Assembly (NCBI GenBank): GCA_943737045.1
Contig: CALSFV010000236.1
Location: 248,001-312,000 of the forward strand
DNA: 64,000 nt
Reading direction: 5' to 3'
Source: Parapristionchus giblindavisi
Taxonomy: Eukaryota; Nematoda; Chromadorea; Rhabditida; Diplogasteridae
The notes under the pieces are model-generated. The model saw only the letters and a program-made list of their open reading frames with translations. It ran no database searches and was not told the origin of the DNA. Numbering within the stretch: the stretch's first letter is position 1; each line of letters starts with the position of its first letter. Shown here piece after piece: positions 19,966 to 61,094 of this stretch. Both the position numbers and the translations under genes were made by a program.

Positions 19966-20225
19966 GTTAGTTATATAGTTATTTAAGTAATTATGATACA
20001 TGACATGGCTTTACGGTCATACATTTTCGGCGCAATCGCAGGATTTTTTTTTGCATAATTGTTCGATTTTCGAAATATCGATCCCCACATTATGAGGAAT
20101 GAAAATGTATGCTCACCCAATTTGTCTTATCGATCTTAAAACATGCATTGGCTATTTCTAGGTCAAAGGTTGTGATGACAACAATGCATACTCGGTCAAA
20201 TGTGCAATCTTGCGTGTACTTGCAG

Positions 20226-30844: not shown

Positions 30845-31072
30845 AAATAAGGGCAAGGGTAGTTCTCCTCCGTTGTATTCCATAGTCAGACAACACTCCC
30901 GTCGGGAGTCGTTACATGGTGCACGGTCAAATCAAACAAGTCCCGCGGGGCAGCAAGCATTCAATCCACATAAATTCATTCAAATTCATCAATCAATCTA
31001 TATCACATTTCCATTCAATCATTGAAGTTCAATTTCATTTCATCCAATCAATTCAATCCATTCAAGCTCACC

Positions 31073-33570: not shown

Positions 33571-33954
33571 TGGTCTGAGAGGCGGCAGGAGCTGTCCCAT
33601 AGTCCGGAGAGGTTCTGATTCTTCACGAAGTCCAGTGAACTCGTCGTGCTCCAGGAACTCTTCGTTTGGTGGAGATGGAGTAGAGTATCGATGAGTTCCA
33701 GACTGAAGATAATATTGATCATTGTTTGAATGATTCCTGCTCTCTGTCTTTCTCTGAATACAAAAAGTAATGGCACATTTGTTGGTACATCCCAATTTGA
33801 GTGAAACGAGATCTAGTGATGAACGTTCATCATCGAAATAAGAGAAAAGCGATCTCAATCGCGAAAGTGACATAAAGTGTTACAAGTGGAAGAATAAATA
33901 TGCAATATATGAGGACAAGGCGAAAAAGATTGTGTAAAATAACAGCAAACCATT

Positions 33955-34469
33955 TCCTTCCGAGGTGGAATTCTCGCGATTTCTGGTAAGCTGACAAGGG
34001 AATGGCCTCAGTTCGCGGAAAGCAAACTGGATAAAATTTTGCATAGGCATAGCTAAACGTATTGTAAGAGCATCGGTAAAATTCAAAAATCCTGGCGTGC
34101 AAAAGCCGACTCAGAAAATCGTTCCAAAGCTTGGTCACATTTGTGAAAATTCCGCCTCAAAGCGATTTTTCGACTCATATTCTGTTCCTGAGTGAAGAGA
34201 ACAAGTGGAACGGTGGCAAAGTGGCCAGTATCTTGGGAATCTTAGCGAAAAATCGTTTTGAGGCAGAATTTTTAGGCGTGTGACCAAACTTTGGACCAAT
34301 TTTTTGGTACGGCTATTGCACGCCAGGATTTTTAGACTTCACCAATGATCTTACAATACGTTCAGCTGTGCCTATTCAAATTTTCATAAAGTTTGCTTTC
34401 CGCGAGCTGAGACCATTCCCTTGTGAGTCGTTGGCTTCTCTGTAGTGGTTGCTCACCCTCGACAATAGC
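33955..34469 (-). pseudogene. Exon E7 of module D, split by a CAAGGGAA element
   Basis: E7 sequence resumes on both sides of 33995-34423. Compared with E7 at 40411-40313 it also lacks one base in the TTCTCCTGTAG stretch and has lost the donor (the GTTCACCTTCGCGG block is deleted). Because neighbouring exons are in phase 0, skipping it would keep the frame. Confidence 0.8.
33995..34423. mobile_element. CAAGGGAA-ended element with TGA target duplication
   Basis: Ends CAAGGGAATG and CATTCCCTTG, TGA at 33992-33994 and 34424-34426. Empty sites in the same E7 exon at 15420, 40365, 51072 and 59195 read AAGCTGAGTCGTTGG or close to it. Arms share the CAGCTCGCGGAAAGC block with 6862-7360. Confidence 0.92.
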
Positions 34470-34594
34470 CTGGATACCACATCATGAATTCACCGTATAA
34501 CATAACATAATTTATCAGGGATCGCATAGTTGCGCTGATCAGACTTTAGGTATTAACCGTATGCACAGCAGTATTCAAAATGAAGAAAGATTGT

Positions 34595-34689
34595 GGGCAC
34601 TTCTTCGGTTTCTGGCCACCGATTGAAAAGATTGAAATGGGGCTGGGGTGAGGTGGGGTGGGGGTGGCCAGAAAACCGAAGAAGTGCCA
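34595..34689. repeat. GGCACTTCTTCGG short inverted-repeat MITE family
   Basis: Ends GGCACTTCTTCGGTTTCTGG and mirror, about 95 bp, in the E7-E6 intron. Relatives at the same intron position: 51247-51340, 55834-55925 and 59374-59465. A longer member lies at 39030-39395. Confidence 0.8.
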
Positions 34690-34764
34690 GACTGTGTATA
34701 CAAGTTTAAATCTCAAGAACGAAATCGCTGCTTTTGTTATTCACAAAGAAAAGAAAAAAGTTTT

Positions 34765-35935
34765 GGCTCTGTTCTACTTTACGGGTCCCATGGAAGTTTA
34801 CCGGTCCCAAGAAAGTTTACGGGTCCCATGAAAGTTTACCGGTCCCAAGAAATTATAACGGTCCCAAGAAATTTTAACGGTCGCATAAAACTTTACCGGT
34901 CCCATAAAACTTTACCGTTAACATACGAGTAGAAAATTCAGGAAAAGTAAGCGCTCTAACAAGGGAATGTTCTCAACTCACCATGGAGTTATGACTAGAG
35001 ACATATACCATTCGAACCGTCATGTGATTCTGTCTGGAAATCCGTTGAGTCTACTTGCCACGAGCTTCTGGTATTCGAAAAAATCGATAATGAAATGTTG
35101 TTTTTCGAGATTTAGCAGGCCTACATAAAATTCACTTCACTGCTTAATGAACCTTCTAGTGTAGTGCGATTAAAAATATATATTTTTGGGGAAAAAGCTG
35201 AAATAGACTTTGACTTAAATTTTATAAAATGTTTGCAAAAAATTGGATGTAAGGTGGGAACGAACCAATAACCAATTATAATACATGCATGCGCCTTGTA
35301 CACTACACCAGATGGTTCATTGAGAAGAGAAGTGAATATTAAGTTTACCTACAAAGCCTCGAAATACAACATTTCATTATCGATTTTCTCGAAAACCAGA
35401 AGCTCGTGGCAAGTAGACTCAACGGATTTCCAGACAGAATCACATGACGATTCGAATGGTATATGTCTCTAGTCATAACTCCATGGTGAGTTGAGAACAT
35501 TCCCTTGTAAGATTTTCATAACTTCATTCACTACGCTGTGCCAGTAATAGGATGAATGAGTACGTTTATATGACCATATCAGCATTTGTCATGTAATCGA
35601 GAGATTGAAGATGCAATGTGTTGTTCAGAAGTAGATATAGCACCCCACCTCTCTTTATCAATTAGCCGTTATCTCCTTTATTACACGATAAACTCTAATG
35701 AGTAATTGAGTTTTTACTATCAAAATGCAATGAAAAAAATAGAATGCAGAAAAAAAAACTAATTATTTCCGATTCATGGGACCGGTAAAGTTTCATGGGA
35801 CCGGTAAAGTTTTATGGGACCGTTAAAATTTCTAGGGACCGGTTAAATTTCATGGGACCGGTAAACTTTCATGGGACCCGTAAACTTTCTTGGAACCGGT
35901 AAACTTCCATGGGACCCGTAAAGTAGAAAAGAGCC
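34765..35935. mobile_element. Foldback element FB3 with minisatellite arms
   Basis: Exact 8-bp duplication AAAGTTTT (34757-34764 and 35936-35943). Inverted ends begin GGCTCTGTTCTACTTTACGG. Arms (34765-34920 and 35775-35935) are tandem units of the type GGTCCCATGAAAGTTTACC. It lies just outside the donor of E6 of module D. Contains the CAAGGGAA element 34960-35507. A weak relic of the same end is at 4189-4230. Confidence 0.88.
34960..35507. mobile_element. CAAGGGAA-ended element nested in FB3 (TAA duplication)
   Basis: Ends CAAGGGAATGTTCTCAACTC and mirror, TAA at 34957-34959 and 35508-35510. Both arms (about 190 bp) are nearly identical. No coding sequence. Confidence 0.9.
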
Positions 35936-36211
35936 AAAGTTTTCCCTTACCAAAATCATTTCCGGGTTAGGCATGGATTCGGATAGATAGTGTCGATGTT
36001 TCTCGATTACTTCTCTGATTGACCGAAATATCTGTGGAGAAAAATCCTTTTTTTCCTCAAATATATGCCAGATCACACTGTTTTTTCTTGATATAATGTG
36101 ACTAACAGTAACAGTAATTGAAAGACACAAATTGCTATGGTAACGCCTTACATCTTTTCACCTAGCATGAAGTGATTTGCATTCATGACGCATTGTCCTA
36201 TCAAATATATA

Positions 36212-37430
36212 CAGTAGACGACACAATTATATCATATTTCAGTATTTCCGTCATAAAATGCATAAAAGTGGGCAAATCTTTCCCAATTTTTTACAGGTAA
36301 TAATCCGTCTATGTATGGTTCTTTGGGCAATTACTTGTTGAAATACCACAAAAAGCAAAATTTTAAAAATTATTTTGCCAAAATTGTGAAATTGACGTTT
36401 TTCTGTTTTATTTTATAACAATTTTTATTTTATACTTGTTCTTTTTAATTCATGTTACCATTCATTATTTTATGATTTAGAGTATGGGTAGGCTTCGTGG
36501 AGCAGCCCGTTTAACATGGCAACATCAAAATACGATGGTATGAGGAGCCCAAAGAGGAGACACACAAGTGCAGCTTTCGCAGCAATTCAACTTGTCCCAA
36601 TCAACGATTTTCCAGGAGCAATTATTGGAACACGTAAACCTCACTGACTCGCCATGTCATCGATTGCAACCTCCTGCGGGCACTACGAAATAACACCCAA
36701 ATGTCGACAGTCATGATCAAATCGATCTCCCAGCCATCTGGAGAATCCAACTTGTCCCTCCACACTACTCAACGTAGTAAGAATGATGCTAGAGTCCATA
36801 CACGTTGCCCGGCTAAGAAGCCCTTCATCAGTCCAAAGAATCATGCATGAGAAAGTGGAGTGTGCATTCGCGTATCGACACCGGGGACCAGCAGAGTAGC
36901 GAAATGTGCCAGACTGCATGAATTTGACACTTTAGATCAAAAATCGATGACATGGCGAGTCAATGAGGTTTACGTGTTCCAATAATTGCTCCTGGAACGT
37001 TTCCAGGTCTGTAACGGGTAAGGAACTTGGAAAATTGTTGATTGGGACAAGTTGAATTGCTGCGAAAGCTGCACTTGTGTGTCTCCTCTTTGGGCTCCTC
37101 ATACCATCGTATTTTGCTGGTGCCATGTTAAACGGGCTGCTCCACGAAGCCTGCCCATACTCTAAATCATAAAATAATGAATGGTAACATGAATTAAAAC
37201 GAACAAGTATAAAATAAAAATTGTTAGAAAATAAAACAGAAAAACGTCAATTTCACAATTTTGACAAAATAATTTTTAAAATTTTGCTTTTTGCGGTATC
37301 TCAACAAGTAATTGCCCAAAGAACCATACATAGGCGGATTATTACCTGTAAAAAATTGGGAAAGATTTGCCCACTTTTAAGCATTTTATGACGGAAATAC
37401 TGAAATATGATATAATTTTGTCGTCTACTG
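36212..37430. mobile_element. TA-flanked palindromic Tc1/mariner-type element
   Basis: Ends CAGTAGACGACA and mirror, TA on both sides (36210-36211, 37431-37432). Empty site in the same intron elsewhere: TATATAACTTCCC. Arms of about 0.4 kb. The arms read MRSPKRRHTSAAFAAIQLVP in both orientations, and 36790-36840 reads CPAKKPFISPKNHA, resembling the Tc1-family stretch before the catalytic core. A transposase remnant folded on itself, not functional. Confidence 0.75.
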
Positions 37431-37642
37431 TAACTTCCCAGGTATATAACTTATAAGGTAAGATATATAACTTTCTTCCATCAACGTCTCTACAACAATC
37501 CCTGTTTCTACTGTACGTATACATTCTACTGTACGTATAAATGAGCATGTCAATAAACCCTATGACACGCACACTCATTTACTTAACAAATGTCACATAT
37601 TTTGAATGTATGGTAGGTAAAACAAATATTTAAAAATCTAAC

Positions 37643-38082
37643 CTCGGTCTTACATTCAGGGAGAATTCCCCATATGCAATTTCTCATGTTGTGAAGACTC
37701 TCATGTCGTTCTTCCTTGTAGAATGCTTTGTTCATACACATACAGTTTCTTATCCCTCTCTTCCACTTTGACGGAGCTCTGGGGCTAGCGAAGTAGGGCC
37801 ACTGCGTTCTGTAAATGATAATTGAAAAAAAACGTAAATAAGGATAAAAGAATGTCCTCAAAAGTAAAAGAAAAGTAAAAGGGACGAAATAGTCTCCGCT
37901 TTTCTTTTTTTCGTTGCTTCTGAACGGAACATTAAATGGCGAACATACTTTATGAAGTCGTATATGCCACGTAATTGAAGACGACAATTCGGACTGTTCT
38001 CGAGGGCCAATAGGGTAAGCATTACATAGGTAAATGGTGGTTTCTCGTAGTTCTTTATCTCCTTTTGTAGTTCGGTCGTCTT
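37643..38082 (-). CDS. Forkhead module D (E3 38082-37949, E4 37808-37643)
   Basis: Open, 100 codons. KPPFTYVMLTLLALENSP, GIYDFIK, then WKRGIRNCMCMNKAFYKEER and WGILPECKTE. KPPFTY is closer to the canonical KPPYSY start than the PPPFSY of modules A-C. Its E2 is at 38445-38314. Confidence 0.82.
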
Positions 38083-38445
38083 CTGAAAATATGAGTTAAT
38101 AGTATGACGTTCCCACAGTTTCTCGTCACTGAACAATCGATTTTTTTGAAATTTCTATCACAATTAGTGTGCACCCTCACTTGTCTTTCTTTTAGAGAAT
38201 AATAGCTACGAATCATGAAAATCGGAAGGAAATGATTTTGCGTGTCCGGTCCCGTAAGTAACATAAACACATCGGCCTTGTATTAAAACAAAAGATGCAG
38301 AACAATTTCGTACTGGTCTGAGAGGCGGAAGGAGCAGTCCCATAGGGCGATGAGAATCAGATTCCTCTCGAGGTCCACTGAACTCGTCCTGCTCCAAGTA
38401 CTCATCATGTTGTGGGGATGGAGTAGGGTATCGATGAGTTCCAGA

Positions 38446-40312
38446 CTGAAAATAATATTTGATAATATATTAAGAGGCATGTTCTCTAACACTCGATCAT
38501 ATTCGACCACCCCCTGACGCGTGCGCTAGATTTGAGAACTGTGGGTCCATACTTGGGTGTTAAGAGTGTCACCGGCACTTATTCCACAAAACAGAAAATT
38601 CATAAAATTCAATTTGAGTGCCTACTTTCACGGTAAATTTCTGAATTATTGCAGTTTGTCGACTCGAATGCTGCGACAATGAGCAAACGACAATGACAAT
38701 GTGAAGTTTCAGCATAGTAGAACTGAAATCCCGGCATTCGGCTCACTTTTGAAAAATCGATTTCCATGTCCCAGGGGTAATGGTAAAAAAAATAAATTTT
38801 CCGAAATAAACGATTTTCATATTGATTATGTACATTGCAAGGCACTAAGACAGAATGTTACAGAACGCAAATTGGAAACTGATTCAAACACAATTCTGAT
38901 TTTTCGCACGCATTCAGCACGAAAATTTTCGAAAAATGGTTGAAAGGAGAGATCAGCCATTGAGCATTGGCTGAATATTATTCACATCATTAGTACATCA
39001 CAATAAGCCGCAGAAATGAAAACATTACGGAACTTCTTCGGTTTCTGGCCACGCCCCCCCCCTCAACCCCCTACCCCTCCATTTCGATTTTTTAGATCGA
39101 GGGAGGACGATGTCCACAGGGGCGAAATGCTCCCCGAGCTCTCCTCAAAATGGGAGAGCTCTGAGAAGGAATCGAGTGTTTTTATAGGGAAATGGGGGGT
39201 GATATGAAAATGAAATTTAATTAGGATGAGAGAGCATGGGAAAAGAGGACACAAAACTCTCATTTCATCAGTCTATCAATCGTGATGCGGTTGGTTTTAC
39301 CACAACCGAGAAGAGGGTCGGTTACTACGTGAAATGATTGCGAGAGGAGAGAGGAGGAGGGGGGGGGGGGCGTGGCCAGAAACCGAAGAAGTGCCAACAT
39401 TTAAAACTTGAGAAATTTTGAATTCTTCGGTCCATGACCGTGAAAATCGAAATTTTCAAACTCATCCAAGTGATGGGCTTCTTGTTTCATTTTACTCGTC
39501 TCGCCTCAAAACTTTGAGTTGGCCACAATTCCGCACCAATCGTTTGGAAAATACAACATTTGTTCGCTTACCCCATCGCTGACGGAAATTCTAGCGAAAA
39601 ATTCGGCAACTGGGTCTAACGTGGAGAACCCAGTTTTAAGTGAAATCAAAGCAGAATTGCTTAGGCTACAATACCTGGTCGGTAAACTGGAGCAAACTAC
39701 AACAAGGGATGATGTGTCCGAAAAAAGCCAAAATTTTGAGTCAAAAAAGTGGTTCAGGAATCAACGCGCATTCGATGCTAATATTAAATTAGCATCGAAT
39801 GCGCGTTGATTCCTGAACCACTTTTTTTTACTCAAAATTTTGGCTCTGTGCACTCTAGACGCATTGCAAATGGTAGTTAGACTTCATCTCAGCAATTCGA
39901 GAATTATGATTTTTTAAACTTTTCGCAATTAAATTAATTTTTCTAATAGCCTGAGGGCAGAAACAGAAAATTTCAGCTGTTTTGTGTAATAAGAATCGGA
40001 ACATCATCTGGATTCGAGGTAGAGAATGAAGCAGAGTCATGTAGACTATAGATGACTTTCCGAGGTTGAATTCTCGCTTGATTAGGAATATCTCATCTTT
40101 TTACGCACACTGTCCTTTTTTGTTTCATTTCTTTTCTTTCGTTTCGACTTGAAAATCGAAAAGTGATGTTCAGTGAGTGTAGCAAGTGGTCGAAAACTAT
40201 TATATTTCAAACGAACAATTCTCCGTACAGGGTAATATTTCGAAGAATAAATAAGTAATAAATGAGGGCACGGCGAAAAAGATTATGCAAAAAATAACAG
40301 CAAATTGTTCAC
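38446..40312. other. Insert-rich stretch between modules D and E
   Basis: 38450-38840 matches 58215-58615 in array 3, so it predates the array duplication. It is followed by the MITE at 39030-39395, a perfect-looking hairpin at 39727-39844 and a short relic of E8 (about 40003-40045, matching the GGAAGAGAATGGAGCAGAATC region). No complete gene is seen. Confidence 0.6.
39727..39844. repeat. Near-perfect 118-bp hairpin
   Basis: GCCAAAATTTTGAGT through GCATCGAATGCG pairs with its mirror over about 55 bases with a short loop near 39785. Confidence 0.85.
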
Positions 40313-41017
40313 CTTCGCGGTTACATTTCCTTCCAAGGTGGAATTCTCGCGATTTCTGGTAAGCTGAGTCGTTGGCTTCTCCTGTAGTGGTAGCTCACCC
40401 TCGACAATAGCCTGGATACCACATCATGAAGTCACCGTATAACATAACATATTTTACCAGGGATCGCGTAGTTGCCTGATCAGGTACTCAACGTATGCAC
40501 ACCAGTATTCAAAATGAAGGAAAGAAGAAAAGGTATACACGACTTAAATTTCAATAACCAAATCCCTGTTTTTGTTATTAAAAAAAGAAAGGGAGAAAAT
40601 GTCGCTTACCAAAATCAATTCCGGGTTCGGCATGGATTCGGATAGATTGTGTCGATGTTCCTCGATTGCTTCTCTGATTGACCGAAATATCTGAAAAGAA
40701 AAATCCTTTTTTCTCAAATATATGCCAGATCACACTGTATTTTTTCATGATATACTGTGATTAACAGTAACAGTAATTGAAAGCCACAAATTGTTATGGT
40801 GACGCCTTACATCTTTTCACCTAGCATGAAGTGATTTGTATTCATGAGCATTGTCTGATCAAATTTTTTCCCAGGTATATAACTTATAAGGTAAGATATA
40901 TAACTTTCTTCCATCAACGTCTACAACAATCCCTGTTTCTACTGTATGCATACCTTCTACTGTACGTATGAATGAGCATATCAACAAAAACTTTGAATAA
41001 ATATTTAAAAATCTAAC

Positions 41018-42989
41018 CTCGGCCTTAAATTCAGGCAAAATTCCCCATATGCAAGATGTCCTCCCATGGAGACTCTCATGTCCCTCCTCATTGTAGAAGG
41101 CTTTGTTCATACACAGACAGTTTCTTATCGAGTTCTTCCAGTTTGACGGAGCTCTGGTGCTAGCGAAGTGGGGCCACTGTGTTCTGTAAATTAGAGTTGG
41201 CTATTCGGGGGTTGCGGGGACCGCAATGGCTCGTAAAATCATTGCGGGCCCGCAACCTCCAAGAGAGGCGAGGTGGAGCGATTGCGGTCGCTAAAAGTTT
41301 CGTAACGTCACTTCTGTAATATATATATGTGCGCGGGCAACACCAGACGGGTTTGAACTCGCGGCAGAGGTGATGAGAATGGGGCGTGGTCTCTATGCGG
41401 GCCCGCAATGCGACGCCGGCCCGCATTCACGTTGCGGGCCATTGCGGGCCCGCATCCCGAAACCCGAATACTCTCGTTTTTTCTCCCAGTAGGGCCCCAA
41501 AGTGGGCGTGGTCTAGCTCCCCCACTAGGATTCTAGGACAGGAGAGATGGCAAAGTGGTCGGATCTCTTCCTACTAGTTTCCTAAAAGATTTCCTAGTTG
41601 GATCCTAGACAAAAGCATGCGGCCGCCCGCATAAAACTGCGCATTTGATGCGGTGCAGCTTTTGCCGAGCGCGTTGCGGCCGACGCCGTTCACAAGTTTC
41701 TGTGTTTTTATATCCCTACATTTCTCAATTTGTTTTTGGTTATTCAATATTATACTATAATTACTTATATTGTTTCGTGATGCGTAGGCTTCAACTGCTA
41801 TAAATGTTACAAAAATAATTTAACGGATGAATCCGTTAACGTTCAATCCCAACCCTGATACACATGTACATATTCATATCTGTCTTTATCCATAATTATT
41901 ACAGGAAGGTGGAAGGCGTATGACGAATTATCTATTTTCCGGCCCCAGATCATCTTACAACTTAACAACTTTACTTGTTAGCAATTTAGAAACTACTTTT
42001 AGACATCCCTCACCTACCCGTACATGCGCGTATGGGTCGATTTCGGAATCTCCTCCGTAAACTTTGGCGTTTCCCTTGTTAGTAAAAACCAATTACATAA
42101 CATATTTAACATAACATAGTTTATATAATAGGGTGATTACTGTAACATTCCAGGAACGAGTACGCGTATCGCAATACAGTTGATATTCATCGTCCGCAAC
42201 CGCCTCAGAATGAGGCCGACGACTATTCTCCCAAAAATCCTTCATCTAATGCAATCCTATATTCTATAAAACTTTGTATGATTCTCTAGATCCCTCTAAT
42301 GCAGACATTTCGACCCTGTAATACTTTGATATAAGAATTTGTTTGATATTACTTTTAATGATTTACTTTTTACACTGTTATACCGATTTGTGTCAGTTGA
42401 TACGGTATTGATACTATACGTTTTCTCCTTCGTTGTTTGGAATATTGATATCATGCACTCTTGAATAAAAAAGTCATTTTACGATAATTCTCGCATCTAC
42501 AGCATCACATAGCAAGACCACGCCCCTCCCCCACTAGTTTCCCAGGACTATCTACTAGTGGTATCCTAGGAACAGAAGGGTTCCTAGTGGGGAACTAGGA
42601 AATCTCCCAAAAGTTTCCTAGCTAGCAACACACTGGGAAATATGCTGGGGCCCCACTGGGAGAAACAAACGAGAGTAGGCAACTCTACTGTAAATGATAA
42701 TTAGAAAAAATAAGTAAATAAGGATAAAGGAATATGCTCAAAAGTAAAAGAAAAGTAAAAGGGACGAAATAGTGCGTAAAACGGGGAGAGTTTTCTCTTC
42801 TCTCTTTTCTTTTCTTTTAGTGGCTTCTGAACGGAGCATAAAAGGTCGAACATACGTTATGAAGTCGTAGAGGCCACGGACTTGAAGACGACGATTCGGA
42901 CTGTTCTCGAGGGCCAATGAGATCATCATTGCATAGGAAAACGGTGGTGGCTCGTACTTCTTTATCTCATTTTGTAGTTCGATCGTGTT
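41018..42989 (-). CDS. Forkhead module E (E3 42989-42856, E4 41183-41018)
   Basis: Open, 100 codons although the intron holds a 1.5-kb hAT-like element. E3: PPPFSYAMMISLALENSP, then LYDFIT. E4: WKNSIRNCLCMNKAFYNEE, which keeps the NSIR of the canonical recognition helix, then WGILPEFKAE. First module of array 2, directly after E1 and E2. Confidence 0.82.
41192..42687. mobile_element. hAT-like element that duplicated a splice acceptor
   Basis: 8-bp duplication CTGTAAAT (41184-41191 and 42688-42695), ends TAGAGTTGGCTATTC and mirror with two mismatches. On the minus strand the duplicated 8-mer is ATTTACAG, the acceptor of E4. GC-rich ends contain repeated GCGGGCCCGCA and CCACTAGG motifs; an AT-rich middle includes an older relic (41817-41860). 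No transposase ORF is seen. Confidence 0.9.
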
Positions 42990-43646
42990 CTGAAAATATA
43001 AGTTCATAGTATGACGTTCCCACCGTTTCTCGTCACTAAACAATTGATTTTTTTTTGGAAATTTCTATCACAATTAGTGTGCACTCTCGCTTGTCTTTCT
43101 TTCAGAGAATAATATAAGAATCATGAAAATTGGAAGGAAATGATTTTGCGTTTCTGGTTCCGTAAGTAAATAGCCGTAATGTAACCACATCGGCCTTATA
43201 TTAAAATAAAAGATGCAAAACACTTTCGTACTGGTCTGAGAAGAGGAAGGAGCTGTCCCATCGGACGATGAGAATCAGATTCCTCTCGAGGTCCACTGAA
43301 CTCGTCCTGAACCAAGCACTCTTCGTGTGGTGGAGATGGAGTAGAGTATCGATCGGATACAGACTGTAAATAGTATTGATTATTATTTACTATTATTACT
43401 GCACTCTGGCTGCACAATCCCACTTTCCCTGACCATGAGTATGAGAAGTAATGGCACAGCGGAAGGTACAAAAATCTTATTTGCATGAACACGACGGAAG
43501 ATTTTTCGTAAATGAATAGGTAATGTGACATGTCCATAAATATACCTTCGTTGATACATTCACTCTATCGAAGTCGAGATTGTAGTATTTATTGTGAAGA
43601 TCACAATCCTGATACTGATGAATTGATGAAAACCCGAAATTCATCG

Positions 43647-50508: not shown

Positions 50509-53500
50509 TCATAAGTGCGTAAAGTATGGTTCAGGCGACAAATTTGGAGGTAGATAATAAAGAGAATCATGAACAAACGGGACAGGCTGGGGCGGATAGG
50601 ACCATTGTGTCATATCACTACCATAGGTGATACCATATGATGGGCTTATGGAATTTGGAGATGGCAGAGTGGAGTAGGACTCATCGAAAAGAGGAGAAGG
50701 TGTAGATGAATATGATAGATAAGGATCGATATGATGTTGAACATCAACTGGATTGGAGGAAGAGAATGGAGCAGAATCAGAATTAGGTGGATCACAGATT
50801 CTCTGAAAATGGGATTTAATAATGTTGTTTATATAAATCACGACAATAAAAGCAAAGAGAAGAAATCGATCACATTATCATGAACTTTTTTTGTTTCTTT
50901 TCTTTTTCGGATTTTTGAACATCGCGAAAGTGACATGAAGTGTTACAAGTGGAAGAATAAATATGCAATACATGAGGACAAGGCGAAAAAGATTGTGTAA
51001 AATAACAGCAAATTGTTCACCTTCGCGGTTACATTTCCTTCCGAGGTGGAATTCTCGCGCTTTCTAGTAAGCTGAGTCGGTGGCTTCTCCTTTAGTGGTT
51101 GCTCACCCTCGACAATAGCCTGGATACCACATCATGAATTCACCGTATAACATAACATAATCTATTAGGGATCTCATAGTTGCGCTGATCAGACTTTACT
51201 TATTCACCGTATGCACACCAGTATTCAAAATGAAGAAAAGATTGTGGGCACTTCTTTGGTTTCTGGTCACCAATCGAAAAATCGAAATGGGGGACGCCCC
51301 TCTTGAGGGGGTGAAGGGTCCAGATACCGAAGAAATGCCAGACTGTGTATACAAGCTTAAATTTCAAGAACCAAATCCCTGTTTTTGTTATTCACAAAGA
51401 AAGTTGTCGTTTACCAAAATCATTTCCGGGTTAGGCATGGATTCGGATAGATTGTGTCGATGTTTCTCGATTACTTCTCTGATTGACCGAAATATCTGAA
51501 AAGAAAAATCCTTGTTTTTTTCTCAAAAATATTCCAGATTCAATGGTCAAACAGTATTTATCTTGATATAATGTGTTTAAAGTAACAGTGCTTGACAGCC
51601 ACAAATTGTTGTGGTGACGACTTGCATCTTTTCACATAGCAAGAAAACATTAGTTCAAAATGCGAAAGAGATGGGAATAGCGGGTCAGAAGGGATGCGGA
51701 AGGCGACTTTTTCCAAATCTGTGGCGCGCGGCTTGGTGTGTTTTCATAATCTCATTGTTATGAGACTGCAGTTCATTAGTCAGAGCGGCGCACCTCAGAC
51801 AGGTTTGGTAGCGCGGTGGAGAGTGCGACAGAGAGAATCATTGGATCCCATCGCGCACGCACATCCGCTCTAATGCACCCCACCAAAGCAGTCTGGCATC
51901 CGCCGCGCCATCTTTATATTCAATCTTTTTTTTAAAACCTCATCCAGAGGTGGAAAACTCGAATTTATTGTTGTCCTGCTATTACAGAGGCTGAACTAAC
52001 GTGAGAAGTGATTTGCATTCATGACTCATTGTCCTATCTAATATATAACTTCCCAGGTACACTGTCTTTCTTGTAGTAACTTCTCTACATCGAATAACCT
52101 TCTACTGTAAGTATAAATGAGCATATCAATAAACCCTTTGACCCGCACGCCCATTTACGTTTACAAATGTCACATATTTTAGATGTATGGCAGGGAAAAT
52201 AAATATTTAAAAATCTAACCTCTGTCTTATATTCAGCGACAATTCCCCACATGCAAAATTTAATCCTATGAAGACTCTCACATCGCTCCATCTTATAGAA
52301 GGCTGCGTACGTACACAGACAATTTCTTATCGCGTTCCTCCACTTTGATGGAGCTCTGGTGCTAGCGAAGTGGGGCCACTGCGTTCTGCAAATGATAATT
52401 AGAACAAAATACGTGAATAAGGATAGCAGACTCTGATCAAAGGCAAAAGAAAAAGAAAAGGGACGAAATAGTACGTAAAACGGAGAGAGTTTTCTCCGCT
52501 TTTCTTTTCTTTTCGTGGCTTCTGAACGGAGCATTAAAGGTCGAACATACGTTATGAAGTCGTAGATGCCACGGACTTGAAGACGACGATCCGGACTGTT
52601 CTCGAGGGCCAATAGGATCATCATTGCATAGGAAAACGGTGGTGGCTCGAAATTCTTTATCTCACTTTGTAGTTCGATCGTCTTCTGAAAATATTAGTTA
52701 ATAGTGCGACATTCCTACAAGAAAAACGTTGTCACTTACCAAAATCAATTCCGGGTTAGGCATAGATTCGGATAGATTGTGTTGATGTTTCTCCATTACT
52801 TCTCTGATTGAACGAAATAACTGTAGAGAAAAATCCTTTTTTCCCGAATATACGCGAGATTCAATTATCTTATATTTTTTTTATATATCTTATAATGTAT
52901 TTAAAGTAACAGTTATTGTAAGCCACAAATTGATATGGTGACGCATTACATTGTTCCACCTACCAAGAAGTGATTTTCATCAATGGGGGGGGGGGGGGCA
53001 ATTCGACAACGCCCATTTCGGCAACGGATCATAAATCGGTTGGGAGGTGGCCTACGACGACAAAAGTTGTGTCATTGCTACCAGCAGGAGTGTATTGTAT
53101 TGGGCTACCGTAACCATCAGGAATCGCGAAGTGATTTTTTTTTTCATTCGACCCATGATTCTCAACCATGACCCGGGTTGACAACGGCCGAAGTCGAAAA
53201 AGTTACGGTGGTCCGAGACCAAATACTGGTTGCCATTATATCAGCAGTGAGCCAACTTGTATCTTCATGGATACCGTAACCCGAACTACCGTAATCGCAA
53301 CGGGATTTGCGTTAACTTAGCAACAAAATCATAAGGTACGGTAGCTAGATTACGGTAATTCAAGTTATGGTATCCAGAAAGATAAAAGTTGGCTCACTGT
53401 TGAAATAATGACAACTAGTGTTTGATCTGCGTTCATCATGAATTTGTAGACCTCGGCCATTCTCAACCATGAACATGGGACGGATGAAATAATCAGTTCG

Positions 53501-56500
53501 CGATTCCCGATGGTCACTCCTACTGATAACAATTGTAGAACTTTTGTTGTCTTACAAGGGAAGCACCAGTTGCGACGGAAACGATTTTGAAAGTGAACCA
53601 TATGGGTAGTTAGGGTTGGGGGGGGGGGAGGGGACCGACAAATCTGTTTTCAAAAGCTGCACCGCGGACCTACTAATCGATAATTTCGACTATTGATTGT
53701 CCACCACCCTCAAGAAATCACTGCCCCAAGGCCTACATATTCGGAAAAGGCAGCGATTATCCATGTGAATGATGCAAGGAAGAAGGATGCACTCCTTGTC
53801 CCAAGTTTGAGAAGCCGTTCTGCTTATGTTTTTGAAGATCTTGCACCAATACTGATTATTTAGGTGTAGTTCCCCTTGTGTATATCTTCATTCACCGTAT
53901 TCTATTTGAATGATAAAGCTCTGAAATGTTGATAAAACAATGAAATTGAAGTTGAGGAAGTTTGTAAAAATCAGCAAAAGAATAATGACCTGGACGGGAA
54001 TCCAAACAAGGGGTACGGGAGTGCTAGTGTGATGCGTTCCTGGTTGAGCCGCCGAGGCACTTGTGCACTCTACGTTGCATCTCCTTGAGTATTTAAGCGG
54101 CGCGTGTATCGATCGATATTATCGATTAGTAGGCCCGCGGTGCAGCTTTTGAAAACAGTTTTGGCGGTCTCCCCCTCAACTCTAACTACCCATATGGGTC
54201 CCTTTCAGAATCGTTTCCGTCGCAACTGGTGCTTCCCTTGTTAGGCCACCTCCGAACCGATTTATGATCCGTTGCCGAAATGGGCGTTGCCGAATTGTCC
54301 ACCCCCCCCCATTCATGACGCATTGTCTTATCAACTATATAACTTCCCAGGTACTAAATTTCTTCCATTAACTTCTCTACAACAATCCCTGTTTCTCCTG
54401 TACCCATACCTTCTACTGTATGTCAATAAACCCTTTGACAAGCACACTTACTTACTTGTAGTTAACAAATATCACATATTTTATATTTATGATAGGTAAA
54501 ATATATATATTAAAATCAAACCTCGGTCTTACGTTCAGGGACAATTCCCCAAATGAAATATGTATTCCCGTGGAGACTCTCACGTCGCTCCTCTTTGTAG
54601 AAGTATTTGGTCTTAAACAGACAATTACTTATCACGCTCTTCCAATTTGACGGAGCCCTGGTGCTAGCGAAGTGGGGCCACTGCGTTCTGCAAATGATAA
54701 TTAGAAAAAATACGTAAAGAAGGATAAAAGAATCTGATCAAAAGTAAGAGAAAAGTAAAAGGTACAAATTGGGCGTAAAACGGGGAGAGTTTTCTCCGCT
54801 TTTCTTTTCTTTTCGTGTCTTCTGAACGGAGCATTAAAGAAGGTGACCCTTGAGTTGGCATGACTGACTCTCGCCACGATACGCATGTTGGCTATTGTTT
54901 ATATTATATGGTAATTGGCATAAGGGATAATCAGAAAATGAGAGAGTCAAGTATGAAAATCGGATGGGCACTCTCTACATGCCTGCGCATGGTGAGCTTT
55001 AAACATATCGGGAATCAATATCAGATATGTCTTTCGATTCGTGCGATGAATCTCTATCATTCTATCCGAACAGTCGTGTTACGAAAAAACTCGAGGGTCT
55101 CCATCTTTAAAGGCGAACACACGTTATGAAGTCGTAGATACTACGGAGTTGAAGACGACGATCCGGACTGTTCTCTAGGGCCAATGAGATCATCATTGCA
55201 TAGGAAAACGGTGGTTTCTCGTAGTTCTTTATCTCACTTTGTAGTTCGATCGTCTTCTGAAAATATTAGTTAATAGTGTGACATTCCCACAGTTTCTCGT
55301 CACTGAACATTTTGTTTTGAAATTTCTATCACAATTAGTGCACCCTCGCTTGTCTTTCTTTCAGAGAATAATAAAAATGGAAGGAAATAGAAAAGAAAAG
55401 GAAAAAGAAAAGAAAAGAAATAGAAAAGAAAAATAGAAGAAATAGAATTTGAAAAGAGATATTCCGTTTTTACACTGCGTCAATAATTAATCCCCACCCT
55501 GTAATTAACCGTAACGCAAACACATCGGCCTTGTATTAAAACAAAAGATGCAGAACAATTTCGTACTGGTCTGAGAGGCGGAAGGAGTTGTCCCATAGGC
55601 CGATGAGAATCAGAATCTTCCCAAGATCCACTGGGCTCGTCCTGCTCCAAGCACTCCTCCAGTTGGGGAGATGGAGTAGATCGATGAGTTCCAGACTGAA
55701 CATAACATTGATTATTGTGTTAAATGATTACTGCTCTCTGTCTTTCTCTGAATCAGGGATCGCATAGTTGCGCTGATCAGGCTTTAGGTATTCACCGTTT
55801 GCATAGCAGTATTCAAAATGAAGAAAAGATTGTGGGCACTTCTTCGGATACTGGACACCGATCGAAAAGATTGAAATGGGGTTGGGGTGAGGGGTGTGGG
55901 GTGGCCAGAAACCGAAGAAGTGCCAGACTGTGTATACAAGCTTAAATCTCAAGAACCAAATGCATGTTTTTGTTATTCACAAAGAAAGGAGAAAGAAATT
56001 GTCGATTACCAAAATCGATTCCGGGTTAGGCATGGATTCGGATAGATTGTGTCGATGTTCCTCGATTACTTCTCTGATTGACCGAAATATCTGTAAAGAA
56101 AATCCTTTGTTCCTCAAATATATGCCAGATTCAATGGTCACAAAGTTTTTATCTTGATATAATGTGATTAACAGTAACTGGAATTGAAAGCCACAAATTG
56201 TTATGGTGAGGCCTTGCATCTTTTCACCTAGCAAGAAGTGATTTGCAGTCATGACGCATTGTCTTATCAAATATATAACTTCCGAGGTATACAGGGTGGG
56301 GATTAATTATTGTAACACCGTAAAAACGGAATTTTTTTTTCCAAAAAAAATTTTGCTCCGCTCAAATATTTACCAGATAATCCTCAATCATCTAGGAATA
56401 CAATAAAACAATCATTGCTCGATTCTTCCTCCATTGGTCTTGATGACGTCCTTGAGACGGGAGGGGTACGACTCTCTCACTGTACGCAGGTAGGTGGTGT

Positions 56501-59500
56501 TCATCTTCGACCACTCCTTTTCCAAGGATTTCTTCAGGGACTACAGCTTTGGGTGGGGAGTAGTGCAGGACCTATCCTCCAAGGTGCCCCAAGCTGAATA
56601 GACCAGGGGCTGAGGTCGGGCTAGGAGGCAGCCAATAATCTCCTCGGATGAATTCGGAAAACTGTTCCTTCCGCCACGTCTTAACGATCTTTGCCTTATA
56701 AACTGGCGTTCCATCCTGCTCGGAGGTCCACGAGCAGTTTCCGACGTGGGAACGGATTCAGGGGTGCTATGCGTCCTTGACTATTTTCCCTTCACAAAAA
56801 ACCATTAGGGAGGTGGAAATCCCTGCCCAAACCATTAGTTTTTAGGGTTTGGAGGTGGTATGGACAATCCGACCATTGCAGTTAGCAACCTGGGGGTCCG
56901 TAGTAAGCACTCGGTGACTCTGGGGGTTATAGGCGGCTTGCACGATGAACAGATTCTGATCGGAGAACATGATCATAAGGGTCTGCCCTACCTGCTTACA
57001 GTGAGAGATCCGTACCCCTCCCGTCTCAAGGACGTCATCAAGACCAATGGAGGCAAAATCGGGCAATGATTGTTTTATTGTGTTCCTAGATGATTGAAGA
57101 TTATCGGGTAAATATTTGAACGGAACTCGATTTTTTTGAAAAAAAGATATTCCGTTTTTTACGGTGTGACAATAATTAATCCCCACCCTGCATAACTTAT
57201 AAGGTAAGATATATCCATCAACGTCTCTACAACAATCCCTGTTTCTACTGTGCGCATAAATGAGCATGTCAATAAATCCTTTGACACACACACTTATTTA
57301 CTTCTCGTTAACAAATGTCACATATGTTGGACGTATGGTAGGGGAAATAAATATTTAAAAATCTAACCTCGGTCTTACATTCAGGGAGAATTCCCCATAT
57401 GAAATAAATCCTCCCGTTGAGACTCTCTCGTAGCTTCTCCTTGTAGAAGACTTTGTTCATAGACAGACAGTTTCTTATCGCTTTCTTCCACTTTGACGGA
57501 GCTCTGGTGTTAGCGAAGTGGGGCCACTGCGTTCTGCAAATGATAATTGAAAAAAAAAACGTAAATAAGGATAAAAGAATCTGCTCAAAAGTAAAAGAAA
57601 AGTAAAAGGGTCGAAATAGTGCGTAAAACGGGGCGAGTTTTCTAATCTTTTCTTTTCTTTTCGTGGCTTCTGAACGGAGCATTAAAGGTCGAACATACGT
57701 TATGAAGTCGTAGATGCCACGGACTTGAAGACGACAATTCGGACTGTTCTCGAGGGCCAATAGGGTCAACGTTAAGTAGGTAAACGGTGGTTTCTCGTAG
57801 TTCTTTATCTCATTTTGTAGGTCGATCGACTTCTGAAAATATGAGTTCATAGTATGACGTTCCCACCGTTTCTCGTCACTGCACAATCGATTTAAAAAAA
57901 ATTTATATCACAATTAGTGCACCCTCGCGTATCGTTCTTTCAGAGAATAATATCTACGAATCATGCAAATTGGAAGGAAATGATTTTTCGTGTCCGGTTA
58001 CGTAACAATAAGTACATAAATAGCCGTAACGCAAACACAGCCTTGTATTAAAACAAAAGATGCAGAACAATTTCGTACTGGTCTGAGAGGCGGAAGGAGC
58101 TGTCCCATAGGGCGATGAGAATCAGATTCCTCTCGAGGTCCACTGAACTCGTCGTGCTCCAAGTACTCTTCGTGTTGTAGGGATGGTGTTGGGTATCGAT
58201 GAGTTCGAGACTGAAAATAATATTTGATAATATATTAAGAGGCATGTTCTCTAACACTCGATCATATTAGACCACCCCCAGACGCGTGCGCTAGATTTGA
58301 GAACTGTGGGTCCATACTTGGGTGTTAAGAGTGTCACCGGCACTTATTCCACAAAAAAAAAGAAAATTCATAAAATTCAATTTGAGTGCCTACTTTCACG
58401 GTAAATTTCTGAATTATTGCAGTTTGTCGACTCGAATGCTGCGACAATGAGCAAATGACAATGACAATGTGAAGTTTCATGATAAGTTAACATAGTAGAA
58501 CTGAAATCCCGGCATTCGGCTCACTTTTGAAAAATCGATTTCCATGTCCCAGGGGTCATGGTAAAAAAATGAATTTTCCGAAATCAACGATTTTCATATT
58601 GATTGCAAAGCACTAAGCCCACCCTGTAAATAGCCGTATCGCAAACACATCGGCCTTGTATTAAAACAAAAGATGCAGAACAATTTCGTACTGGTCTGAG
58701 AGGCGGAAGGAGTTGTCCCATAGGCCGATGAGAATCAGATTCTTCCCAAGATCCACTGAGCACGTCCTGCTCCAAGTACTCTTCGTTTGGTGGAGCTGGA
58801 GTAGAGTATCGATGAGTACCAGACTGAAAATATTATTGATCATTGTTTTGAATGATTCCTGCTCTCTGTCTTTCTCTGAATACAAAAAGTAATGGCACAT
58901 TTGTTGGTACATCCCAATTTGAGTGAATCAAACGAGATCTGGTGCGTTCATTTGAAGGAATAAAATATTATTATTATTTTTATTATTATTATTATCTAGT
59001 GATGAACGTTCATCATCGAAATAAGAGAAAAGCGATTTCAATCGCGAAAGTGACATAAAGTGTTACAAGTGGAAGAATAAATATGCAATATATGAGGACA
59101 AGGCGAAAAAGATTGTGTTAAATAACAGCAAATTGTTCACCTTCGCGGTTACATTTCCTTCCGAGGTGGGATGCTCGAGCTTTCTGGTAAGCTGAGTCGT
59201 TGGCTTCTCCTGTAGTGGTAGCTCACCCTCGACAATAGCCTGGATACCACATCATGAATTCACCGTATAACATAATATCATAACATAACATAATTTATCA
59301 GGGATCGCATAGTTGCGCTGATCAGACTTATTAACCGTATGCACAGCAGTATTCAAAATGAAGAAAAGGTTGTGGGCACTCCTTCGGTTTCTGGCCACCG
59401 ATCGAAAAAGATTGAAATGGGGCTGGGGTGATGGGGGTGGGGTGGCCAGAAACCGAAGAAGTGCCAGACTGTGTATACAAGTTTAAATCTCAAGAACGAA

Positions 59501-61094
59501 ATCGCTGTTTTTGTTATTCATAAATAAAAGAAAAAAAGTTGTCTTTTACCAAAATCAATTCCGGGTTAGGCATGGATTCGGATAGATAGTGTCGATGTTT
59601 CTCGATTACTTCTCTGATTGACCGAAATATCTGTGGAGAAAAATCCTTTTTTTCCTCAAATATATGCCAGATCACACTGTTTTTTTTTCTTGATATAATG
59701 TGACTAACAGTAACAGTAATTAAAAGCCACAAATTGCTTTGGTGACATCTTTTCAACCAGCAAGAAGTGATTTACATTCATGACGCATTGCCCTATCAAA
59801 TATATAACTTCCCAGGTATATAAATTATAAGGAAAGATATATAATATAACTTTCTTCCATCAACGTCTCTACAACAATCACTGCTCCTACTGTACGCATG
59901 CCTTCTACTGTAAGTATAAATGAGCATATCAATAAATCCAATGACACGCATACTCATTTACTTAACAAATGTCACATATTTTGAATGTATGGTAGGTAAA
60001 ACAAATATTTAAAAATCTAACCTCGGTCTTACATTCAGGGAGAATTCCCCATATGCGATTTCTCATGTTGTGAAGACTCTCATGTCGCTTCTCCTGGTAG
60101 AAAGCTTTGTTCACACACAGACAGTTTCTTACCCCTCTCTTCCACTTTGACGGAGCTCTGGGGCTAGCGAAGTAGGGCCACTGCGTTCTGCAAATGATAA
60201 TTGAAAAAAACGTAAATAAGGATAAAGGAATGTGCTCAAAAGTAAAAGAAAAGTAAAAGGGACGAAATAGTCTCCGCTTTTCTTTTTTTCGTAGCTTCTG
60301 AACGGAGCATTAAAGGGCGAACATACTTTATGAAGTCGTAGATACCACGTGCTTGAAGACGACAATTCGGACTGTTCTCGAGGGCCAATAGGGTCAGCAT
60401 TACATAGGTAAATGGTGGTTTCTCGTAGTTCTTTATCTCCTGTTGTACTTCGATCGTCTTCTGAAAATATGAGTTTATACAAGCAACAGCGTGACCTTCC
60501 GTCACAGTCTTATCTTCTTTGAACTATCAATTTATGCAAAATTTTTATCAACTTTTTTTAAATTGTCATTGTTATATAAAGTTATGCCAAAATTAATGCA
60601 CTCTCGCTGGTTCGGCTTTCAAAGAATTATGAAAAAAAGTAAATCAGTTCAAAAAAAGATGAAAATATTTCGTACTTGTCTGAAAGGCGGAAGGAGCTGT
60701 CCCATAGGTCGATGAGAATCAGATTCCTCTCGAGGTCCAATGAACTCGTCCTGAACCAAGCACTCTTCGTGTGGTGGAGATGTAGTAGAGTATCGATCGG
60801 TTACAGACTGTAAATAGTATTGATTATTGTTTATTATTATTACTGCACTCTGGCTGCACAATCCCACTTTCCCTGACAATGAGTTTGAGAAGTAATGGCA
60901 CAGCGGAAGGTACAAAAATCTTATTTGCATGAATACGACGGAAGACCTTTCTCAAACGTAAATGAATAGGTAATGTGGCATGTCCATAAATATACCTCCG
61001 TTGATACATTCACTCTATCGAAGTCGAGATTGTAGTATTTATTGTGAAGATCACAATCCTGATACTGATGAATTGATGAAAACCCGAAATTCAT
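50509..61094 (-). CDS. Forkhead array 3: intact gene with four forkhead domains
   Basis: Transcript order: E1 61094-60996; E2 60807-60676, E3 60460-60327, E4 60187-60022, E6 59630-59550, E7 59239-59141; E2 58823-58692, E2 58210-58079, E3 57832-57699, E4 57533-57368, E6 56090-56010; E2 55695-55567, E3 55256-55123, E4 54687-54522, E6 52820-52740; E3 52684-52551, E4 52385-52220, E6 51495-51415, E7 51119-51021, E8 50802-50509. All twenty exons are open, junctions are GT-AG, and phases agree, giving 879 aa. Starts MNFGFSSIHQYQDCD two bases after a TTTTCAG acceptor. Each domain has the forkhead helix 1, GIY.FI and W....RN.L signature. E8 is a 97-aa S/P/Y-rich tail. Likely a nuclear DNA-binding protein. 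Alternative: separate transcripts, but only one E1 and one E8 exist. Confidence 0.75.
51645..52004. mobile_element. 0.36-kb insertion in the E6-E4 intron of module F
   Basis: Interrupts AGCAAGAAGTGATTTGC, which is continuous in other modules; AGAA is duplicated at the edges. Short inverted ends share TTAGTTC. GC-richer interior with GGCGCGCGGC; no coding sequence. Absent from module B. Confidence 0.65.
52220..52684 (-). CDS. Forkhead module F (E3 52684-52551, E4 52385-52220)
   Basis: Open, 100 codons. PPPFSYAMMILLALENSP, GIYDFIT, WRNAIRNCLCTYAAFYKME, WGIVAEYKTE. Last of the four domains of array 3, followed by E6, E7 and E8. Confidence 0.83.
52985..54310. mobile_element. CGGCAACGG-type foldback element with G/C runs at the ends
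   Basis: Left: a G run, then CAATTCGACAACGCCCATTT; right mirror ends GCCGAATTGTCCACCCCCCC. Inverted arms also contain AAATCGGTTGGGAGGTGGCC. Inserted in the E6-E4 intron of module G at ATTCATGACG. It encloses the CAAGGGAA element 53555-54240. Relatives at 16785-27886 and 22741-23560. Confidence 0.78.
53555..54240. mobile_element. CAAGGGAA-ended element nested in a foldback (TTA duplication)
   Basis: Ends CAAGGGAAGCACCAGTTGCG and mirror; TTA at 53552-53554 and 54241-54243. Arms of about 150 bp with a G-rich or C-rich run; unique centre of about 0.4 kb without a gene. Confidence 0.9.
54522..55256 (-). CDS. Forkhead module G (E3 55256-55123, E4 54687-54522)
   Basis: Open, 100 codons; counterpart of the broken module C. 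KPPFSYAMMISLALENSP, SIYDFIT, WKSVISNCLFKTKYFYKEE, WGIVPERKTE. The Arg of the RH/RN pair is Ser here, so it is the most diverged recognition helix. The intron has the same 0.27-kb insert as module C (about 54836-55108). Confidence 0.82.
56292..57190. mobile_element. Mariner-like composite with two inverted 3' ends
   Basis: Both termini read CAGGGTGGGGATTAATTATT, followed by the same 3' coding end in opposite directions: minus strand near 56410-56540 (TVRESYPSRLKDVIKTNGG) and plus strand 56995-57066 (TVRDPYPSRLKDVIKTNGG). The middle, minus strand, keeps MFSDQNLFIVQAAYN and a TSEQDGTPVYKAK stretch, mariner catalytic-region motifs. The transposase N terminus is missing. TA-type target. Solo end relics at 55463-55505 and 58612-58625. 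Confidence 0.82.
57368..57832 (-). CDS. Forkhead module H (E3 57832-57699, E4 57533-57368)
   Basis: Open, 100 codons. KPPFTYLTLTLLALENSP, GIYDFIT, WKKAIRNCLSMNKVFYKEK, WGILPECKTE. Preceded by two successive E2 exons (58823-58692 and 58210-58079), both open and phase 0. Confidence 0.83.
58211..58691. other. Stretch between the two E2 exons of array 3
   Basis: 58215-58615 matches 38450-38840 upstream of module D; then a relic of the mariner-like end (CCCACCCTG) and the E3-E2 intron sequence. Suggests the E2 doublet arose when this block joined two module copies. Confidence 0.55.
60022..60460 (-). CDS. Forkhead module I (E3 60460-60327, E4 60187-60022)
   Basis: Open, 100 codons. KPPFTYVMLTLLALENSP, GIYDFIK, WKRGVRNCLCVNKAFYQEK, WGILPECKTE. 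First domain of array 3. Its E1/E2 side resembles module E while E3 to E7 resemble module D, as expected for an unequal exchange product. Confidence 0.83.

What the first reader, a model, noticed from the sequence alone, without database searches (positions are those of the whole stretch)
50509..61094. A single gene that appears to encode four forkhead domains
Seen: twenty open exons on the minus strand with GT-AG junctions, one first exon (E1), one last exon (E8) and four E3+E4 forkhead pairs. E1, E2, E6 and E7 are phase 0 at both ends, and E3+E4 together are phase 0, so modules chain in frame to 879 aa. Known: forkhead proteins normally carry one such domain; I know of none with four. Inference: a poly-forkhead protein that could bind several sites or long arrays of sites.
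Basis: partly seen in the sequence, partly recalled or inferred. Interest (0 to 1): 0.95.

Follow-up and report, generated by a model that had tools for sequence, protein, structure and literature searches.

The report
Nematode gene encoding four forkhead domains
A roundworm gene appears to have been built by repeating the middle exons of an ordinary one-forkhead gene, so that one message could encode a protein with four slightly different DNA-gripping domains; no RNA evidence was available.

Summary
On the minus strand, 61094-50509, 20 open exons and 19 GT-AG introns join in frame to 879 aa; Pfam finds four forkhead domains.

The array is one of four genes in a tandem cluster. Two are one-forkhead genes (E1-E2-E3-E4-E5-E6-E8). 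Gene II also has four forkhead modules and the same fused intron between modules 3 and 4, but one module has an in-frame stop. The layout therefore probably predates the gene I/II duplication.

No second first or last exon was found between modules. Modules 3 and 4 are 55 nt apart, a short intron with 5' splice site GTAAGT. E3-E5 lack the indels of nearby introns. Eleven orthologous blocks of genes I and II, pooled, give omega 0.57 (p=0.022); among gene I modules omega is 1.1.

All four modules lack the canonical helix-3 histidine that the one-forkhead genes keep.

Expression is untested: alternative splicing or decay remain possible. Two searches showed no paper naming a multi-forkhead protein. 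Nearest precedent: C. elegans CEH-100, 12 homeodomains.

The parts
60996..61094 (-). E1, first coding exon; ATG two bases after an AG splice acceptor (ttttcagcgATG)
   Evidence: 99 percent identical to gene II E1; same acceptor-ATG arrangement in genes II-IV
60676..60807 (-). E2 of module 1
60327..60460 (-). E3 of module 1 (forkhead first half)
   Evidence: Pfam
60022..60187 (-). E4 of module 1 (forkhead second half: helix 3, wing 1)
   Evidence: Pfam; alignment to FOXN3
59550..59630 (-). E5 of module 1
59141..59239 (-). E6 of module 1
58692..58823 (-). E2, first copy, module 2
58079..58210 (-). E2, second copy, module 2
57699..57832 (-). E3 of module 2 (forkhead first half)
57368..57533 (-). 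E4 of module 2 (forkhead second half)
56322..57159 (.). inverted-repeat element inserted in the E4-E5 intron of module 2 (arms of 173 nt)
   Evidence: I1; no Pfam match in the 151-aa frame 56845-57297
56010..56090 (-). E5 of module 2
55567..55695 (-). E2 of module 3 (one codon shorter)
55123..55256 (-). E3 of module 3 (forkhead first half)
54522..54687 (-). E4 of module 3 (forkhead second half)
52986..54310 (.). nested inverted repeats inserted in the E4-E5 intron of module 3
   Evidence: I2, I3, I4, I6
52740..52820 (-). E5 of module 3
52685..52739 (-). 55-nt fused intron joining module 3 (E5) to module 4 (E3), 5' splice site GTAAGT; gene II has it at 16559-16613 with two differences
52551..52684 (-). 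E3 of module 4 (forkhead first half)
52220..52385 (-). E4 of module 4 (forkhead second half)
51415..51495 (-). E5 of module 4
51021..51119 (-). E6 of module 4
50509..50802 (-). E8, last exon with stop codon; Ser/Pro-rich tail; AATAAA at 50160 downstream
14861..43644 (-). gene II, sister gene: E1, four forkhead modules, E8; module 3 E4 (28099-28264) has an in-frame TAG and one E6 is a fragment
1..8201 (-). gene III, one-forkhead paralogue (E1-E2-E3-E4-E5-E6-E8), last exon crosses the window start

Best explanation
A single nematode transcription unit encodes a multi-forkhead transcription factor of up to 879 aa with four forkhead domains. Steps shown by sequence: beside one-forkhead genes (III and IV, taken as the ancestral exon plan) stands a version in which the E2-E6 block is repeated between one E1 and one E8. 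The joints lie inside introns: E6-E8 intron sequence runs into E1-E2 intron sequence at module 1/2, and at module 3/4 a 55-nt intron has an E5-type start and an E3-type end. The blocks keep the reading frame. Inferred steps: the joints arose by unequal crossing-over; the message starts at E1, all modules are spliced in, and the protein holds DNA through several diverged helix-3/wing surfaces at once, reading a composite site, while the Ser/Pro-rich E8 tail acts as the effector region.
For: One E1 and one E8 bound the array, and no E1- or E8-like piece was found between modules (tblastn E<=0.01; blastn E<=0.05). 20 of 20 exons open and 19 of 19 GT..CAG introns. Four Pfam forkhead stretches. 55-nt intron with 5' splice site GTAAGT between modules 3 and 4, also in gene II. 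E6-E8 intron sequence continues after E6 of module 1 (97 percent over 100 nt), and the end of the E1-E2 intron (48 nt, 77-79 percent) precedes the first E2 of module 2 and the E2 of module 3. Module order shared with gene II: I1=II2, I3=II3, I4=II4, support 99-100. In E3+E4+E5 zero indels in 381 nt against 10 in 356 nt of flanking intron (p=0.0007), and zero stops where 4.9 are expected (p=0.007). Eleven orthologous blocks of genes I and II pooled: omega 0.57, p=0.022. ATG of E1 two bases after a splice acceptor in all four genes; 335 exact SL1 copies in the genome.
Against: No transcript or protein evidence; protein-database searches returned no member of this family. Among gene I modules omega is 1.1, not different from 1 (p=0.69), so average constraint is weak. 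None of the seven blocks with more than two changes differs from omega 1 on its own. No significant positive-selection class (M2a vs M1a p=0.58). The indel and stop tests could partly reflect selection before the modules were joined. The helix-3/wing-1 concentration of differences is also seen between the one-forkhead genes III and IV (7 of 30 against 3 of 70, p=0.007), so it is not special to the array. Sister gene II has an in-frame stop. Four of the six AATAAA between 61200 and 50100 lie in gene I introns, one of them (58984) between modules 1 and 2. The structure prediction was uninformative.
Confidence: 0.6

Rival explanations
1. Alternative splicing of modules: one pre-mRNA, but each message takes one (or few) forkhead modules between E1 and E8, giving a set of one-forkhead isoforms with different DNA specificity, as in FOXP1 exons 18/18b.
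For: The modules are frame-keeping cassettes, so any subset stays in frame. The one-forkhead relatives III and IV have exactly E1+one module+E8. E4 carries helix 3 and wing 1, the region that differs most. FOXP1 swaps mutually exclusive exons in its forkhead domain and changes DNA preference (passages of PMC11701043). PMC9013439 (passages) links tandem exon duplication with mutually exclusive splicing and cites a hypothesis that duplicated intronic RNA structures make it an inevitable consequence; I did not test intron RNA structures.
Against: Modules are irregular (two E2 in module 2, none in module 4, E6 missing in modules 2 and 3), so a one-of-four choice would need several exons switched together. 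The 55-nt intron joins modules 3 and 4 directly.
Confidence: 0.22
2. Neutral by-product: recent unequal crossing-over in a tandem cluster made an array that is not expressed or is decaying, and the exons are open only because there has been little time.
For: Omega about 1.1 among gene I modules. Gene II has an in-frame stop and a fragment of an E6. Inverted-repeat insertions in introns.
Against: 105 substitutions (parsimony, assumed tree) in E3-E5 with no stop and no indel in gene I, against 4.9 expected stops and about 10.7 expected indels. All 19 splice-site pairs kept. Pooled omega 0.57 between orthologous blocks of genes I and II, p=0.022.
Confidence: 0.13
3. Each module is a separate message (own start or own end inside the array), i.e. 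a cluster of small genes.
For: AATAAA occurs at 58984 between modules 1 and 2 and at 60835, 57079 and 51969 in other introns.
Against: No E1-like or E8-like exon found between modules. The 55 nt between modules 3 and 4 leave no room for an end and a start.
Confidence: 0.03
4. Assembly artefact: collapsed haplotypes or misjoined repeats created the array.
For: The region is repetitive and raw reads were not available.
Against: Gene I modules differ by 15-21 percent in E4, and gene II repeats the order with its own divergence, on a 926-kb contig.
Confidence: 0.02

Closest known systems
C. elegans CEH-100 and CEH-99 (12 and 4 homeodomains) and other multi-homeodomain genes (PMC4448998, passages seen)
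   Same: Several copies of one DNA-binding domain in one protein, restricted to one lineage, related by recent duplication, divergent domain sequences
   Different: Homeodomains, not forkheads; the 12 homeodomains of CEH-100 are described as tightly packed, while here the modules are separated by linker exons E2, E5 and E6
One-forkhead FOX proteins (Pfam PF00250); the best solved match of module 1 is FOXN3 (6nce)
   Same: Forkhead domain; 68-75 bits per module
   Different: Four domains instead of one; helix-3 contact residues changed; the PDGW motif described for FHL-specific members is not present (APSxW instead)
FOXP1 exon 18/18b switch (PMC11701043, passages seen)
   Same: An alternative exon within the forkhead changes DNA preference
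   Different: Mutually exclusive choice of one exon; here whole modules, with no evidence of exclusive choice
Zinc-finger array proteins (recalled, no call)
   Same: Duplicated modules whose DNA-contact residues vary most
   Different: Forkhead modules of about 100 aa, only four, no demonstrated positive selection

Membership tests
Forkhead (FOX) family | Match to PF00250 above the curated cut-off | tested here: met
   Four of four gene I modules, 67.8-75.3 bits, cut-off 27; modules III, IV, II1, II2 and II4 at 74-79.4 bits; II3, which has the stop, was not scanned
Forkhead (FOX) family | Canonical helix-3 contact residues N-S-x-R-H (FOXN1 Asn317, Ser318, Arg320, His321; passages) | tested here: not met
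   Alignments: I1 R,G,R,N; I2 K,A,R,N; I3 S,V,S,N; I4 N,A,R,N. Genes III and IV: N,S,R,H, met. So membership by profile stands, canonical recognition does not
Forkhead (FOX) family | Winged-helix fold | tested here: inconclusive
   Only an exon-intron-exon reading was folded; mean pLDDT 42, no meaning
Multi-DNA-binding-domain transcription factor (CEH-100-like) | Several copies of one domain in one continuous coding sequence | tested here: met
   At gene-model level only:
Multi-DNA-binding-domain transcription factor (CEH-100-like) | All domains present in one message | not testable with these tools
   No RNA data held
Mutually exclusive exon cluster (FOXP1- or Dscam-like) | Exactly one alternative per message, exons of equal make-up | tested here: inconclusive
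   Modules unequal and modules 3/4 joined by a 55-nt intron; usage itself not testable
FOXN-type FHL-specific members | PDGW motif before helix 3 (passage) | tested here: not met
   APSxW in all four gene I modules
C. elegans FKH-3 / FKH-5 (bind a CTGTTTCA probe in vitro according to PMC3597512, passages) | Orthology by sequence tree | not tested
   Those sequences were not returned by any protein search

The most novel reading that the evidence does not exclude
A poly-forkhead transcription factor whose four modules carry different recognition helices and together read a long composite DNA site, with modules gained, lost and re-coded by unequal crossing-over, so that forkhead domains evolve in this nematode in the way zinc-finger arrays do elsewhere.
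Probability: 0.3. Interest if true: 0.85.

Novelty: new variant of a known kind. Interest (0 to 1): 0.62.

Why it matters
Forkhead factors are known as one-domain proteins (recalled); two phrase searches of the held library showed no paper naming one with two or more. If transcribed as modelled, this gene shows that a forkhead domain can be serialised within one protein. The cluster holds the one-domain form, an intact four-domain form and a degenerate four-domain form side by side, so the steps can be tested directly.

Tried and rejected
Homologue search in the large protein set: gene IV protein, none at E<=0.001 among 1220 candidates; 879-aa chain, 3 hits among the 7992 candidates that were scored; alignment A1, one hit among 3159 candidates. 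Each of these 4 hits has a single forkhead stretch. So no multi-forkhead protein and no member of this family was reached; these searches need shared 5-residue words.

Pfam also reported PF01947 (Rv2949c-like) for the 879-aa chain at 42.2 bits, over its cut-off of 22, but with no stretch passing on its own; its best stretch lies inside the third forkhead, so I took it as added-up weak matches of a repeat.

Positive selection: M2a no better than M1a (p=0.58), so I do not claim it. M1a lies 8.2 log units above M0, so sites differ in constraint. The enrichment of variable residues in helix 3 and wing 1 (23 of 30 against 23 of 70, p=7e-5) used borders that I set after seeing the alignment; genes III and IV show it too (7 of 30 against 3 of 70, p=0.007).

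Structure: the spliced domain is not read letter for letter from the DNA, so I folded only the exon-intron-exon reading of I4 with those of I2 and II4 as alignment; mean pLDDT 42, useless. No fold search was made.

SL1 RNA family search found nothing and its control genomes rang nothing either; an exact 24-base SL1 pattern found 335 copies, reversed control 0. The Ruby-motif/piRNA lead from PMC3597512 was dropped because relation to FKH-3/5 could not be tested. NCBIfam, a library for bacteria and archaea: no match for gene IV. Rfam (gathering scores) and ARAGORN: nothing in the window.

The indel test used three flanks only (E3-E4 intron of I1, I2 and I4; 100 nt after E4; 100 nt before E5); flanks before E3 and after E5 were left out because they align poorly. 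The pooled omega used the 11 blocks that I judged orthologous; module I2 forkhead and E5, its first E2, E6 of module 1, E5 of module 4 and the unmatched gene II exons were left out. II4 was left out of the site models because it is nearly identical to I4.

Full report
WHAT IS THERE. The minus strand of 61094-50509 holds 20 exons, every one open, which join in frame to 2640 nt, 879 aa plus stop. All 19 introns start with GT and end with CAG. Pfam PF00250 matches the 879-aa chain in four stretches with 257 bits, and each of the four E3+E4 modules alone with 67.8-75.3 bits against a cut-off of 27. Among solved structures the best sequence match of module 1 is FOXN3, E=1e-13.

CONTEXT. The window is part of a 251-Mb assembly of 703 contigs, contig C236. 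The family search of that genome gave 43 exon-level forkhead matches at E<=0.001, 17 of them on C236 between 245 and 309 kb. With the exons of gene I as queries on 124 kb around the array, four genes appear, all on the same strand. Gene I is the array of the finding. Gene II (43644-14861) has one E1, one E8 and four forkhead modules. Gene III (8201 to beyond the window start) and gene IV (just outside the window, in L011) have one E1, one each of E2, E3, E4, E5 and E6, and one E8. A lone E8-like remnant lies further on, in L010. In all four genes the ATG of E1 follows an AG acceptor by two bases, which suits a trans-splice site (inference).

HOW THE ARRAY AROSE. Genes III and IV show the one-forkhead plan. 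In gene I the intron after E6 of module 1 matches the E6-E8 intron (97 percent over 100 nt), and the 48 nt before the first E2 of module 2 and before E2 of module 3 match the end of the E1-E2 intron (77-79 percent). The intron between module 3 and module 4 is 55 nt long: by eye its start is like the start of other E5-E6 introns, its end like the end of other E2-E3 introns; its 5' splice site is GTAAGT, and gene II has the same intron with two differences. Such joints are what unequal crossing-over between introns of tandem genes would leave (inference). The codon tree pairs I1 with II2 (100), I3 with II3 (99) and I4 with II4 (100), and the longest matches between the flanks of genes I and II have 90-96 percent identity. 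So a gene with several forkhead modules probably existed before genes I and II separated. Module turnover went on: I2 and II1 have no clear partner in the forkhead tree, and I4 and II4 differ by one base in 300, which suggests later exchange.

IS IT A WORKING GENE? For: in gene I, E3, E4 and E5 have 105 substitutions by parsimony on an assumed tree, and no indel and no stop; the flanking intron pieces would predict about 10.7 indels (p=0.0007 by the ratio test), and 4.9 stops would be expected (p=0.007). E2 of module 3 has lost one whole codon. Over 11 orthologous blocks of genes I and II (1947 nt), omega is 0.57, different from 1 at p=0.022; none of the seven blocks tested singly is. Against: among the four gene I modules omega is 1.1, not different from 1, while FH+E5 of genes III and IV give 0.28, p=0.001. 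Gene II carries an in-frame TAG in its third E4 and a fragment of an E6. Part of the frame-keeping may date from before the modules were joined. Divergence is patchy: between modules 1 and 2 the E3-E4 intron is 94 percent identical, E4 85 percent and the stretch after E4 79 percent, which suggests gene conversion and weakens any simple rate comparison. No transcript was available.

WHAT THE MODULES SHOULD DO. The four modules agree best in the first half of the domain and in E5, and differ most in helix 3 and wing 1: 23 of 30 residues vary there, 23 of 70 elsewhere (Fisher p=7e-5; borders set after seeing the alignment). The one-forkhead pair III/IV shows the same tendency, 7 of 30 against 3 of 70, p=0.007, so it belongs to the family and not to the array alone. 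In FOXN1 the bases are contacted by Asn317, Ser318, Arg320 and His321 (passages of PMC7062188). The matching residues are N,S,R,H in genes III and IV, but R,G,R,N in I1, K,A,R,N in I2, S,V,S,N in I3 and N,A,R,N in I4. The fold is likely kept, and the DNA preference likely changed, differently in each module (inference). A significant class of positively selected sites was not found.

MECHANISM. Most likely (0.6) the message runs from E1 to E8 with all modules, and the protein is a transcription factor with four DNA-binding domains and one Ser/Pro-rich tail. The 55-nt intron makes joint use of modules 3 and 4 the least doubtful part. The main rival (0.22) is alternative splicing of modules, for which FOXP1 exons 18/18b are a precedent (passages of PMC11701043). 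Decay or no expression gets 0.13.

COMPARISON AND NOVELTY. Of twelve phrases for a protein with more than one forkhead domain, eleven occur in no paper of the held library; 'double forkhead' occurs in one, a yeast paper whose abstract speaks of two Fkh binding sites (listing and start of abstract only, PMC5308776). Such searches miss subscription papers and other wordings. The protein searches reached no multi-forkhead protein: 4 hits in all, each with one forkhead stretch. C. elegans has genes with several homeodomains, up to 12 in CEH-100; of the listed divergent ones none apart from ceh-79 has an obvious orthologue in other Caenorhabditis species (passages of PMC4448998). Multi-domain factors of this sort are therefore a known kind in nematodes; the forkhead version is a new variant as far as these searches go.

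CHECK. I left the odds as they were.

Noticed in passing
window 14861-43644: Gene II, a second four-module forkhead array with an in-frame TAG in the E4 at 28099-28264, an E6 fragment near 33952-33999 and an extra E2 at 33571-33702.
   Followed up: yes
window 18025-26019: Endonuclease (PF03372, 18025-18951) and reverse transcriptase (PF00078, 23941-26016) open frames on the plus strand inside the 11-kb intron between E4 and E5 of gene II module 3; they look like parts of non-LTR retrotransposon(s).
   Followed up: partly
window 44000-47700 and 8560-14290: Stretches of 90-96 percent identity on the downstream sides of genes I and II, showing that the gene I/II duplication included intergenic DNA.
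   Followed up: partly
L015 4704-5001 and L016 3693-4121 (contig C15, 211.7-221.1 kb): Two divergent forkhead domains 9 kb apart on the same strand; either two tandem genes or another two-domain gene.
   Followed up: partly
L019, L020, L021, L023, L024: Further divergent forkhead loci on five other contigs, with varied helix-3 sequences; perhaps a larger fast-evolving forkhead group.
   Followed up: no
window 57534-57698 and 52386-52550: The E3-E4 introns of modules 2 and 4 are both 165 nt and open in frame, so a retained intron would add 55 aa inside the forkhead.
   Followed up: no
window 57368-57832 against 60022-60460: Between modules 1 and 2 the E3-E4 intron (94 percent) is more alike than E3 (90) and E4 (85) beside it; gene conversion or faster change of E4, not resolved.
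   Followed up: partly
contig C145, about 26-90 kb (part listed): Tandem array with an exact SL1 sequence about every 1.16-1.17 kb, a few steps 1.37 kb.
   Followed up: no
window about 380-800 and 1870-2440: Low-complexity repeats read as FGTGRFGTRPFWN on one strand and VPKRPVPKRP on the other, in the E6-E8 intron of gene III.
   Followed up: no
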